Assembly: GCA_015067585.1 (NCBI GenBank)
Contig: SVMC01000003.1
Span: forward strand, 1-64,000
Length of the DNA: 64,000 bases
Source of the DNA: Oscillospiraceae bacterium
Lineage (GTDB): Bacteria; Bacillota; Clostridia; Oscillospirales; Oscillospiraceae
Reading direction: 5' to 3'
Shown: positions 41,226 to 45,527 of the stretch, piece after piece
Numbering within the stretch: position 1 is the stretch's first letter
How the letters are laid out: each line of letters begins with the position of its first letter
Notes under the pieces: model-generated
Database searches by the model: none
What the model saw: the letters and a program-made list of their open reading frames with translations, nothing else
What the model was told of the DNA's origin: nothing
Program-made: the position numbers and the translations under genes

Positions 41226-41295
41226 AGATGTGGGGGCCGTTGTTTCACTGCGGTTCCCATCTTTTTCAGGTAATATATCAGAGGTGGTAGGTTCA

Positions 41296-41829
41296 ATGAA
41301 GGAATGGGGCCCCGGGTGGTTTGATCAATTGTATCTGGAACAATATGAACTCTTGAAGAACTGTGCATTCAGATCTCTGGGGGATGAGATGCTTTGCGAT
41401 GAAATCGTGCAGGAGGCGTTTCTGGTTCTTCTGATCAAGGAGAAGGAATTGAAAAAGAAGCGTCATCCGAACCTTGCGGGATGGCTTATGCTGACGGTGC
41501 GGAATCTGGTGAAAAATGAGATTGCCAGAACAACCCGGCGCAATGAATGCTATTTGAACGATGAAGAAGTGATCGTGACGGAGGATCGGCACAGGCTATT
41601 GGAAGCTATACTGCCTGCCACCTTGTCCGATGAAGAACGGCAGATCCTGGTGTGGCTTTACGAAGATTGCCACGGAACGCAGGAGATTTCTCAGCTTCTG
41701 AGGGTGCCGGAGAACACTGCGAGGGTCAAAATCCACCGAGCCAGAGAAAAATATAAAAAAATTTCAGAAAATGAAGAAATGTTGAAACAAAATGGGCTTC
41801 TGATAACATATAGTAGTGAGGGGGTGTAA
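41296..41829 (+). CDS. ECF-type RNA polymerase sigma factor
   Basis: LCDEIVQEAFLVLLIKEKELKKKRHPNLAGWLMLTVRNLVKNEIAR; region 4 CHGTQEISQLLRVPENTARVKIHRAREKYKK. Confidence 0.88.
   Translation: MKEWGPGWFDQLYLEQYELLKNCAFRSLGDEMLCDEIVQEAFLVLLIKEKELKKKRHPNLAGWLMLTVRNLVKNEIARTTRRNECYLNDEEVIVTEDRHRLLEAILPATLSDEERQILVWLYEDCHGTQEISQLLRVPENTARVKIHRAREKYKKISENEEMLKQNGLLITYSSEGV
41783..41814 (+). promoter_or_regulatory. Copy 1 of a 32-bp element with ECF-like -35 (TGAAAC)
   Basis: TGAAACAAAATGGGCTTCTGATAACATATAGT; 27/32 identical to copy 2. Confidence 0.5.
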
Positions 41830-41832
41830 TTG

Positions 41833-42693
41833 ATGCCTGAGAAACAGCGTAATTTGGCCGTGGTACGCCAAACACGTCTGTCTCAAATCCAAAAGCATCT
41901 GGAAGAATTAACACCGGATGAATTGCAGACAGAATATGATTCGTTTTTCCTGAACGCAGCAGATGAAGATCTGGATTTGGAATTGCTTGATTTGTATTTG
42001 AAACAACTGGATAAGGTTTCGCCGATGGAGCCTGAGATCACAGCAGAGGAATCATTGAAGAATTTCCGCGATAAGCATGGTTTGCTGCTGGAGTCTCTGG
42101 AGCCTGTCCCCGAAGTGCCGAAGAAACGCAGAACCATCCGCATCATCACCATCGCGGTAGCCGCCGCCCTGGTCATGGGCCTGATGGCGATACAGGTCTC
42201 CGGCGTGAACTGGATGGGCAGCTTCGCCCGCTGGACCAGCGAACTCTTCGGCTTCTCCACCCGGGACTATGAGGTTACCAAAGAATGGAACCCGGAGTAT
42301 GACGGGCTGAGGGAAGCCATGGAGGAGTTGGGCATTACGGAGAAGATTGCACCTAAGTATCTTCCGGAAGGGTATCGAGAGGTAGATGTGAGTGTTGATT
42401 CCGTTGGGCGGACTGTCGTGGCAAAATATATCTCTGCCGATAACAGCATTATGATTTCTGTTGATATTGTACAAGGTTCAGAAGGGATCTTGGTAGAAAA
42501 GAACATCGAAGACCCGGAAGTCTATGTGGCGGGCAATATTAAACACTACATCATGACCAATTCAGATACAGATCAATTTGTTGCGGCATGGCAAAACGGA
42601 GATTATAACTGTGCGATTTACTGTGTTCCTACCAGAGATATCTTGATAAGAATGATAGATTCGATTTATACGGAGGAAGAAAATGAAACATAA
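41833..42693 (+). CDS. DUF4367-like membrane protein, probable anti-sigma factor
   Basis: TM segment IITIAVAAALVMGLMAIQVSG; PKYLPEGYREVDVSVDSVGRTVVAKYISADNSIMISV. Confidence 0.75.
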   Translation: MPEKQRNLAVVRQTRLSQIQKHLEELTPDELQTEYDSFFLNAADEDLDLELLDLYLKQLDKVSPMEPEITAEESLKNFRDKHGLLLESLEPVPEVPKKRRTIRIITIAVAAALVMGLMAIQVSGVNWMGSFARWTSELFGFSTRDYEVTKEWNPEYDGLREAMEELGITEKIAPKYLPEGYREVDVSVDSVGRTVVAKYISADNSIMISVDIVQGSEGILVEKNIEDPEVYVAGNIKHYIMTNSDTDQFVAAWQNGDYNCAIYCVPTRDILIRMIDSIYTEEENET

Positions 42694-43120
42694 CGCAATA
42701 CGCATCATTGCGATGATGCTGGTATTGATTTTAGCAATGAACCCATTAACGGTTTTTGCCACAGATTTTATCGAAGAAAGTTCCGTTGAAGATTCCAGAG
42801 CGAGCAATTATATCAGTTCTACCTATGCCACCGTCACAAATACCAATGGAAGAGTTGAAGTTTACTTTCGTATTATTGGTACGGGAACAATGAACAGCAT
42901 CGGTGCTGCACAGATCCAACTTATGGATTCTTCTGGCACAACAGTGAAAACATTCAACTATAAGACGACGTCTGGAATGATGTCTTATAGCACATATAGA
43001 CACTTTGGTTCTGTATTTTATAGTGGATCAGCATCTACCAGATATACTGCAATCGTTACCTTCCAGGCCAGCAACAATTCTGGTTCGGATAACCGGACTT
43101 TCCGTGCGACACAGCCCTAA
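42683..43120 (+). CDS. Small secreted protein of unknown function
   Basis: Signal peptide IIAMMLVLILAMNPLTVFA; GGAGG RBS; start overlaps the preceding gene. Confidence 0.75.
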   Translation: MKHNAIRIIAMMLVLILAMNPLTVFATDFIEESSVEDSRASNYISSTYATVTNTNGRVEVYFRIIGTGTMNSIGAAQIQLMDSSGTTVKTFNYKTTSGMMSYSTYRHFGSVFYSGSASTRYTAIVTFQASNNSGSDNRTFRATQP

Positions 43121-43865: not shown

Positions 43866-44059
43866 GCAGCGGGTTGTCTCAAAATGAAATTGTGCGAAAG
43901 AGAAGCTTGCACTCCTGACGGGGATCGTGTGAAAGGGGCGGTCTTGGAGCCTCTTTCGCGTTCAATCAGAAATTTTGTTTCTGTCACGCTTGTCTACGCA
44001 GCATAGGTTGCCGGAAACCGGATTTCGTGGTATTCTCTCTGAGAAGGGAAGTGGCAGTG

Positions 44060-44644
44060 ATGAATACCTATGTGACCGGCAGCACCATCCGGCAGCTTCG
44101 GGAAGGCAGAAAAATGACCCAGGCGGAATTGGCCGGGCGGATTGGCGTCAGCAGTAAGACCATATCCAAATGGGAGACGGCAAAAGGTCTGCCGGATATC
44201 AGCCTGCTGCAGCCGTTGGCGGCGGCCCTTGGCATCTCAGTGATCGAACTGATGGCCGGGGAACCGGTTCAGAACAGGAATCTTTCTGCCAATATGCTCC
44301 GTTCCCTTTTTTATGTCTGTCCCATTTGCGGCAACGCCATCCATAGTCTTGGGAATGCGGTGATAAGCTGCTGCGGCGTATTGCTGCCTGCGCTGGAGGC
44401 GGAGGAACCGGACGAGGCGCATTTGGTCACCATCGAGGAGGTGGAGGATGAGCAGTTTATCACCATCCATCACCCCATGACGAAGCAGCATTTTATCTCT
44501 TTCGTGGCCTATGTTACCTGCGACCGGATCCGGATGGTGAAGCTGTATCCCGAGGGCAATGCCCAGACCCGGCTGCAGATGCGGGGAAGGGGATACCTCT
44601 ATTATTACTGCAATCACCACGGTTTGTTCAGAATGAAACGATAA
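44060..44644 (+). CDS. HTH regulator fused to a desulfoferrodoxin-like domain
   Basis: HTH IRQLREGRKMTQAELAGRIGVSSKTISKWETAKGLPDIS; then CPICGNAIHSLGNAVISCCG and HHPMTKQHFISFVAYV...YCNHHGLF. Confidence 0.85.
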   Translation: MNTYVTGSTIRQLREGRKMTQAELAGRIGVSSKTISKWETAKGLPDISLLQPLAAALGISVIELMAGEPVQNRNLSANMLRSLFYVCPICGNAIHSLGNAVISCCGVLLPALEAEEPDEAHLVTIEEVEDEQFITIHHPMTKQHFISFVAYVTCDRIRMVKLYPEGNAQTRLQMRGRGYLYYYCNHHGLFRMKR

Positions 44645-44709
44645 TTTACGAATTCTTAATGAATCGTCTCCTTCTTTGTGATATGATAAATAAAAAAGGA
44701 GGATCGGAT

Positions 44710-44946
44710 ATGGAAAAATTCATTCCCTACGAGAAGCTGTCCAAAAAAGAGCGCCGCAAACTGAACCTGGCCGCCCGCCGGACCTGGGGCATATGCAACC
44801 CCGTCACAAGAAAGCCCGCCAACAGCAGGGCCTACAACAGAAAAAAGTCACAGGACTGGAAGCGGGATCTGCCGCCAAAACATTCCTGTGACTTTTTGTT
44901 ATATTCCGCGAGATTTTGTGCATTACTTGACAGCTTGATTTGTTGA
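44710..44946 (+). CDS. Small very basic protein with intrinsic terminator inside the ORF; candidate ribosome-rescue-type factor
   Basis: AAGGAGG RBS; MEKFIPYEKLSKKERRKLNLAARRTWGICNPVTRKPANSRAYNRKKSQDWKRD...; hairpin at 44842..44897 lies within the coding region. Confidence 0.7.
   Translation: MEKFIPYEKLSKKERRKLNLAARRTWGICNPVTRKPANSRAYNRKKSQDWKRDLPPKHSCDFLLYSARFCALLDSLIC
44842..44897 (+). terminator. Intrinsic terminator located inside the 44710..44946 ORF
   Basis: AAAAAGTCACAGGA (44842-44855) / TCCTGTGACTTTTT (44884-44897), perfect 14 bp; inner GCGG/CCGC. Confidence 0.75.
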
Positions 44947-45134
44947 GTGTAGTATATTGTTGATCCCCGCGATAAGAAGGTGGAGCGGCCACAGAGGATC
45001 ACATTTACATCTTCCGTTTCCCGCAAAAAACCATTGTGCCACATGAGCTTCAATGGTGCTGATTGCGGGGGAAGGATACGATCCTGCTCTGATTAGAGAA
45101 GTCTTGTTGTGTGGAAAAAGGGAGGAACGGCGCA

Positions 45135-45527
45135 ATGAATAAAACAGAAGCGCAATGCTATGATTTTATCATAGCGCTTGCCCGGGAATTGGAGGCTGAT
45201 TTTGCGACACAGTACGAAACAATGGAAGCATTCGCAAGATGGAATCTCCCGGAAGAAATCGCACTTGAATGGCTTGATGCAGAGGGAATGCTGCAAACGA
45301 TTAAAATGCTCCAATACCGCTCGCAAGAGGAGATTGCGTTGATTGAATTGATTATGCGCAATTTTGATACTGCTTTTCAACAAACGCAAAACCCTGTATG
45401 GACTTATTCTGCGATGCAAAATGATGTGTTTTGGCATCAACAAAGGCATCTTGCCCGGAAATTGATTGATATGGCAGAGAATCGAAACCCGATTCTGCGT
45501 CTTGGAACTGGGCAGGAAATAGAATAG
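45135..45527 (+). CDS. Hypothetical protein
   Basis: 130-aa ORF with GGGAGG upstream of the internal ATG. Confidence 0.65.
   Translation: MNKTEAQCYDFIIALARELEADFATQYETMEAFARWNLPEEIALEWLDAEGMLQTIKMLQYRSQEEIALIELIMRNFDTAFQQTQNPVWTYSAMQNDVFWHQQRHLARKLIDMAENRNPILRLGTGQEIE

What the first reader, a model, noticed from the sequence alone, without database searches (positions are those of the whole stretch)
44710..44946. Small basic ORF with a terminator inside its coding sequence: candidate ArfA/BrfA-like ribosome-rescue factor
Seen: a well-placed AAGGAGG RBS drives a 78-aa ORF. It has a strongly basic N-terminal ~55 aa (MEKFIPYEKLSKKERRKLNLAARRTWGICNPVTRKPANSRAYNRKKSQDWKRD) and a hydrophobic tail (SCDFLLYSARFCALLDSLIC). 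A perfect 14-bp stem (AAAAAGTCACAGGA / TCCTGTGACTTTTT, 44842-44897) ending in a T run lies inside the ORF, upstream of the stop at 44944. Termination there would give a non-stop mRNA truncated within the codons after SCDF. Established: E. coli ArfA and B. subtilis BrfA use this arrangement (intrinsic terminator inside a basic ORF), so that functional protein accumulates only when trans-translation fails. Inference: this gene may be an unrecognised lineage-specific rescue factor regulated the same way. I cannot show sequence homology to ArfA or BrfA.
Basis: partly seen in the sequence, partly recalled or inferred. Interest (0 to 1): 0.85.

Follow-up and report, generated by a model that had tools for sequence, protein, structure and literature searches.

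The report
Self-truncating backup ribosome-rescue gene in Clostridia
A short gene found across gut and rumen Clostridia ends its own messenger RNA before the stop codon, the wiring that E. coli and Bacillus use for their backup 'unjam the ribosome' proteins, and it appears to be an unrelated, unrecognised protein of that kind in a lineage with no known backup.

Summary
The 78-aa ORF (44710-44946) contains a strong terminator hairpin (44842-44897) 46 nt before its stop codon. About 130 distinct homologs were found, mainly in Oscillospirales-type Clostridia. In 105 of 126 a hairpin plus T-run lies at codons ~44-60, against 0.25 expected by chance. It covaries (14 of 16 pairs with double changes), and the stop codon lies past the T-run in 96 of 105, anywhere up to >1 kb on. 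The first 43 codons evolve at dN/dS 0.12; the tail after the hairpin is usually unalignable. The same scan finds the same geometry in E. coli arfA; only 1 of 97 neighbouring genes has it. The family has no detectable similarity to ArfA, to the PDB entry holding BrfA, or to any Pfam/NCBIfam family. The genome has tmRNA, SmpB and RF2. A sister subfamily (26 ORFs) mostly lacks the hairpin and keeps a normal stop. Best reading: a further, independently evolved alternative rescue factor made from non-stop mRNA and so kept low by trans-translation. The non-stop mRNA is well supported by comparative evidence; rescue activity and use of RF2 are inferred. No experiment was possible.

The parts
44679..44687 (+). 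extended -10 promoter element (TGaTATGAT), 22 nt before the ATG
   Evidence: read directly; a -10-like hexamer in this stretch is commoner than in shuffles across the family (71 of 126 vs 32.6 shuffled); no good -35
44696..44702 (+). Shine-Dalgarno AAGGAGG
   Evidence: SD-like sequence before 106 of 126 homologs
44710..44946 (+). ORF, 78 codons, TGA stop at 44944-44946; small basic protein
   Evidence: homologs with dN/dS 0.12 over codons 1-43
44710..44868 (+). conserved core coding region, codons 1-53 (FIPYEKLSKK...R-x2-W...NPVTRKP-x-NS-x-AYNRKK)
   Evidence: alignments A1 and A6: invariant M1 K9 R23 W26 P31 R34 Y42 R44; AF2 helices 12-22 and 44-48, mean pLDDT 78
44842..44897 (+). intrinsic-terminator hairpin inside the ORF; arms 44842-44855 and 44884-44897
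   Evidence: position conserved in 105 of 126 homologs with compensatory changes in 14 of 16 pairs of the family stem
44893..44900 (+). T tract and predicted RNA 3' end, about codon 62-64; predicted non-stop product ends near ...HSCDF
   Evidence: sequence; predicted 3' ends across the family fall at codons 58.7-63.3 (5-95%); no RNA data
44898..44943 (+). tail codons after the terminator (ending ...LLYSARFCALLDSLIC), predicted to be made only on read-through
   Evidence: the corresponding 60 nt is at background identity in most homolog pairs; mean hydropathy of family tails +0.67 against core -1.54

Best explanation
This is a monocistronic gene for a small basic, ribosome-directed protein whose transcription ends at an intrinsic terminator inside the coding sequence, so that most of its mRNA has no stop codon. 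Ribosomes run to the 3' end at about codon 61-63 and stall. While trans-translation works, tmRNA-SmpB tags the ~62-aa product for destruction and little accumulates. When trans-translation is overloaded or lost, the truncated protein survives, enters the empty mRNA channel of non-stop ribosomes and recruits a release factor (most likely RF2, since the protein has no GGQ motif) to free the peptide. It would be a backup rescue factor working like ArfA and BrfA but evolved independently. Supported by comparison of homologs: the conserved protein, the conserved in-ORF terminator, no conserved tail. Inferred: termination in vivo, tagging, ribosome binding, rescue activity, use of RF2.
For: Homologs in 24 of 99 relatives and 114 of 401 genomes of its GTDB family, 174 hits in GTDB species genomes. 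In-ORF hairpin+T in 105 of 126 distinct ORFs vs 0.25 expected; predicted RNA end confined to codons 58.7-63.3 while the stop lies beyond it in 96 of 105, with ORFs up to 478 aa. Covariation: 92.4% of cells paired, 14 of 16 pairs with double changes, 112 double-change cells vs 23 shuffled and 15-26 when slid; RNAalifold finds the stem on its own. Core dN/dS 0.12; tail at background identity in most pairs whose cores are 78-91% identical. Paralogs in one genome align from -72 to +178 only, the promoter-to-terminator unit. Convergent neighbours often end within a few nt of codon 60, as mscL does at arfA. The same scan on E. coli arfA finds a hairpin at codons 51-66, before the stop. tmRNA, SmpB and GGQ-bearing RF2 are present in the genome. 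Net charge of the first 58 aa is +7 to +15, median +11. Published ArfA and BrfA work this way (PMC6881298, PMC8012679).
Against: No RNA 3'-end, protein or genetic data. In-frame stops come sooner after the hairpin (median 9 codons) than stops in the other frames (20.5 and 23), so the read-through stop is under some selection, and 9 of 105 have the stop at or before the predicted RNA end. A sister subfamily (26 ORFs, 23 with no hairpin at all) and 7 members of the main subfamily lack the hairpin. A ribosome close behind RNA polymerase could weaken termination. The protein shows no similarity to a known rescue factor by sequence or by Foldseek, so the function rests on regulation, size and charge.
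Confidence: 0.75

Rival explanations
1. The gene is made from non-stop mRNA and so senses failing trans-translation, but the protein does something else in that stress, for example ribosome protection, hibernation or RNA binding, rather than releasing peptides.
For: All evidence for the non-stop design applies equally; the protein has no detectable homology to a proven rescue factor.
Against: The two published genes with this wiring, ArfA and BrfA, are both RF2-recruiting rescue factors of about 55-62 aa (PMC8012679, PMC6881298). The order N-terminal helix, extended stretch, short C-terminal helix in the AF2 model resembles the described BrfA layout, though Foldseek finds no match.
Confidence: 0.15
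2. An ordinary gene whose terminator happens to overlap its 3' end; most transcripts carry the stop codon and there is no non-stop regulation.
For: In-frame stops are enriched soon after the hairpin and 7 of 105 have their stop inside the T tract.
Against: In 96 of 105 the stop lies more than 8 nt past the T-tract start, in 22 of them more than 80 nt; the tail is not conserved; 1 of 97 neighbouring genes has such an arrangement.
Confidence: 0.07
3. The hairpin is a pausing or frameshift element that moves ribosomes into another frame with a nearby stop, giving a normally terminated protein.
For: Some members carry A-AAA-AAG just before the stem; 61 of 126 have a stop in the +2 frame within codons 44-60.
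Against: Only 10 of 126 have a slippery heptamer in the right register; the T-run after the stem is the conserved feature, which fits termination.
Confidence: 0.02
4. The terminator is an attenuator that controls a downstream gene in response to translation of this ORF as a leader peptide.
For: Terminators inside or after short ORFs are used this way in other systems (general knowledge).
Against: Downstream genes differ from locus to locus, and many are convergent and end at the hairpin; core dN/dS of 0.12 over 43 codons shows the protein itself is selected.
Confidence: 0.01

Closest known systems
ArfA (E. coli YhdL; Pfam PF03889)
   Same: Small basic protein; terminator hairpin inside the ORF before the stop, found at codons 51-66 by the same scan; hydrophobic tail after the hairpin; convergent neighbour ending at the gene's end
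   Different: No sequence similarity (no member hits PF03889; genome negative; hhalign probability 0.5%); lacks the KGKGSYMRKGKH region; different phylum
BrfA (Bacillus subtilis YqkK)
   Same: Gram-positive host; ~71-codon ORF with a terminator at about codon 62; order of helix, strand/extended region and short helix resembles the AF2 model; cell has tmRNA and RF2
   Different: The PDB copy holds entry 6szs, the BrfA-RF2 complex (its RF2 chain is hit), yet family profiles match no chain at E up to 10 and Foldseek finds nothing. BrfA is reported only in the B. subtilis group (PMC11633108). Direct alignment to BrfA was not done because its sequence could not be obtained here
ArfT (Francisella)
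   Same: Possible parallel for the sister subfamily: an RF-dependent rescue factor without an internal terminator (PMC6299226)
   Different: Different lineage; sequence not compared here; ArfT can use RF1 or RF2, untested for this family
ArfB (YaeJ)
   Same: Same proposed role, backup rescue of non-stop ribosomes
   Different: ArfB carries its own GGQ catalytic domain; this protein has no GGQ. Firmicutes mostly lack ArfB (PMC11633108)

Membership tests
ArfA family | sequence match to Pfam ArfA PF03889 | tested here: not met
   no member of A1 hits it at E up to 1; genome search negative; hhalign against E. coli ArfA 0.5%
ArfA family | terminator hairpin inside the ORF giving non-stop mRNA | tested here: met
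   by sequence and comparative evidence, same scan as positive control; RNA ends not mapped
BrfA family | sequence or fold homology to B. subtilis BrfA | tested here: not met
   no hit to any PDB chain at E up to 10 though entry 6szs is in the copy; no Foldseek hit; no direct pairwise comparison
Non-stop-encoded alternative rescue factor (functional class) | small basic protein with the internal terminator conserved and the tail dispensable | tested here: met
Non-stop-encoded alternative rescue factor (functional class) | trans-translation (tmRNA, SmpB) and RF2 present in the same cell | tested here: met
   own genome; RF2 shows GGQ and SPF
Non-stop-encoded alternative rescue factor (functional class) | accumulates only when trans-translation fails; releases peptides from non-stop ribosomes; synthetic sick or lethal with ssrA | not testable with these tools
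   needs bench work
ArfB family | GGQ release-factor domain | tested here: not met
   no GGQ in the sequences listed; no Pfam hit for the window protein

The most novel reading that the evidence does not exclude
A previously undescribed, independently evolved class of alternative ribosome-rescue factor, to my knowledge the first in Clostridia, existing in two forms: a self-terminating form that tmRNA keeps silent, and a sister form that lacks the internal terminator and is made constitutively. It spreads between unrelated chromosomal sites, sometimes in up to five copies per genome, as a ~250-bp unit of promoter, ORF and terminator, and in some cases sits on virus-like or recombinase-bearing contigs.
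Probability: 0.5. Interest if true: 0.85.

Novelty: new variant of a known kind. Interest (0 to 1): 0.76.

Why it matters
A survey of more than 15,000 genomes reports ArfA/BrfA in Firmicutes only in the B. subtilis group and ArfB as mostly absent from the phylum (PMC11633108), and the BrfA authors predicted further unidentified rescue systems (PMC6881298). This family would fill that gap for a large group of gut and rumen bacteria. It would be a further non-homologous protein to converge on the same circuit, hiding a terminator in one's own coding sequence to read out tmRNA capacity. It also shows that the circuit leaves a comparative signature (conserved core, covarying hairpin, unconserved tail) that can be searched for in any genome. 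The sister subfamily without the hairpin offers a natural experiment on gain or loss of that control.

Tried and rejected
Known families: Pfam, NCBIfam, PHROGs, PDB sequence and PDB fold searches gave nothing convincing. Rfam found no RNA family at 44400-45200. Conserved operon: neighbours are diverse, 124 Pfam families over 97 neighbours. Plasmid origin: no hit in PLSDB; phage records: two weak hits. Several IMG/VR contigs carry the gene, one beside a serine recombinase, but a phage origin was not established. Loss of trans-translation as the reason for the hairpin-less subfamily: rejected, since 23 of 24 of those genomes have SmpB. Programmed frameshift: rejected. Complete neutrality of the stop codon: tested and not met. 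Scanning genome contigs with the full alignment A1 failed for lack of a conserved stretch, so A2 was used; that sample is biased towards the main subfamily, and the less biased figures are those. The B. subtilis BrfA sequence could not be retrieved for a pairwise test.

Full report
WHAT IS THERE. The window holds an extended -10 element (44679-44687), a perfect AAGGAGG (44696-44702), an ATG at 44710 and a 78-codon ORF ending in TGA at 44944-44946. A 14-bp perfect stem (44842-44855 with 44884-44897) ending in TTTTT lies inside the ORF. The region folds at -32.5 kcal/mol against -18.0 +/- 2.9 for shuffles. Termination in the T tract would end the RNA at about 44900, near codon 62-64, before the stop codon. 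The generic scanner misses it because of its loop limit.

THE FAMILY. The protein has no Pfam, NCBIfam or PDB match. It does have clear homologs: 24 of 99 relatives, 114 of 401 genomes of the same GTDB family, some with several copies, only 7 of 391 in the class at large, and 174 hits among GTDB species genomes, titled Oscillospiraceae, Ruminococcaceae, Clostridiales or Clostridia. The conserved part is about 50 aa: MxKFIPYEKLSKKxxRxxxxxxRGxWGxxNPVTRKPxNPKAYNRKK, with M1, K9, R23, W26, P31, R34, Y42 and R44 invariant among 89 sequences. The first 58 aa carry a net charge of +7 to +15. AlphaFold gives a helix at 12-22 and a short helix at 44-48 (mean pLDDT 78, pTM 0.36).

THE HAIRPIN IS CONSERVED IN THE ORF. 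Among 126 distinct homologous ORFs, 105 have a hairpin plus T-run at codons ~44-60; 0.25 are expected from dinucleotide shuffles, and 28 of 1260 random positions score as high. Among 97 neighbouring genes scanned in the same way, 1 has one in its last 150 nt, while 30 have one after the stop. As a positive control the same code finds E. coli arfA's hairpin at codons 51-66. Predicted RNA ends fall within codons 58.7-63.3 (5-95%), yet the stop lies more than 8 nt beyond the T-tract start in 96 of 105 and more than 80 nt beyond in 22; three ORFs run on to 353-478 aa. The stem covaries: 92.4% of cells paired, 14 of 16 pairs with changes on both sides, 112 double-change cells against 23 in shuffles and 15-26 when the partner is slid. 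RNAalifold recovers the stem without being told. The sequences in that alignment were chosen for having a hairpin, but they come from the 105 of 126 that do.

THE PROTEIN IS SELECTED, THE TAIL IS NOT. In 22 independent pairs, codons 1-43 give pN 0.080, pS 0.452 and dN/dS 0.12. The 60 nt after codon 62 are at about background identity in nearly all pairs even when cores are 78-91% identical; the exceptions are L029/L030, L044/L073 and L015/L016. Two paralogs in one genome (L036 and L043) align from -72 to +178 and nowhere else in the 1-kb stretches compared, that is from promoter to terminator. Convergent downstream genes often end within a few bases of codon 60.

WHAT DOES NOT FIT SMOOTHLY. 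In-frame stops come sooner after the hairpin (median 9 codons) than stops in the other two frames (20.5 and 23; p about 6e-6 and 2e-7), so a read-through stop is favoured, as arfA and brfA also keep one. In a less biased sample of 118 ORFs the main subfamily has 65 with the stop beyond, 8 with the stop within the T tract, 7 with a hairpin but no T-run, 3 with the hairpin after the stop, 7 with no hairpin and 2 cut by contig ends. A second subfamily (VPLxKxSKKAQREYHAKQRGSWxGxxPVTRTVPSxKAYDRxRxK; 26 ORFs) has no hairpin in 23 and a stop at about codon 52-63 in nearly all. It forms one region of the tree with modest support (85/98). Its genomes still have SmpB (23 of 24).

MECHANISM. The genome carries tmRNA, SmpB and RF2 with GGQ and SPF motifs. 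From the published behaviour of ArfA and BrfA (PMC8012679, PMC6881298), the expected chain is: internal termination, non-stop mRNA, tagging and degradation while trans-translation works, accumulation when it does not, then RF-dependent release on non-stop ribosomes. The first two steps are supported by comparative evidence. The rest are inferred; the protein lacks a GGQ motif, so it would need a release factor. The invariant R23 and W26 and the VTR stretch 32-34 are candidates for the roles that R25, F31 and the 35-38 strand play in BrfA, but this is analogy only.

MEMBERSHIP. It is not an ArfA by sequence. It is not a detectable BrfA: family profiles hit no PDB chain although the BrfA complex 6szs is in the copy, and Foldseek finds nothing; a direct comparison with BrfA homologs was not possible. 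It works like them in wiring. A survey places ArfA/BrfA in Firmicutes only in the B. subtilis group, with ArfB mostly absent (PMC11633108). Literature searches for a clostridial factor of this kind found none in the held library; most subscription journals are not covered.

VERDICT. Observation confirmed; interpretation supported as the most likely one (0.75), with non-stop expression more secure than the rescue function.

Noticed in passing
L036, L043 (one genome); L171, L174, L195 (genome G807); L056: Several genomes carry two to five copies; paralogs share only about -75 to +178 around the ATG, as if promoter-ORF-terminator moves or is copied as a ~250-bp unit.
   Followed up: partly
L023, L210, L213, L220-L224, L227-L244 (sister subfamily): Sister subfamily mostly lacking the internal hairpin, with a normal stop at about codon 52-63; some genomes (G521, G718) hold both forms.
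   Followed up: partly
L113-L131 (IMG/VR contigs): Homologs sit on contigs classed as viral; in L118 the gene starts 85 nt after a large serine recombinase, suggesting carriage by or insertion of mobile elements next to it.
   Followed up: partly
L133:4992-5165: A divergent homolog of 57 aa without a hairpin lies on a 319-kb viral contig, possibly a large phage encoding its own version.
   Followed up: no
L012 / L081 (genome G003, contig C104): In this genome the gene lies about 2.4 kb from smpB and 3.6 kb from the tmRNA gene.
   Followed up: no
window 44027-44644: The upstream gene joins a Cro/C1-type HTH to a C-terminal stretch matching desulfoferrodoxin.
   Followed up: no
window 41230-43120: Sigma-70-like factor, DUF4367 protein and a small secreted-looking protein in a row, a possible sigma/anti-sigma operon.
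   Followed up: no
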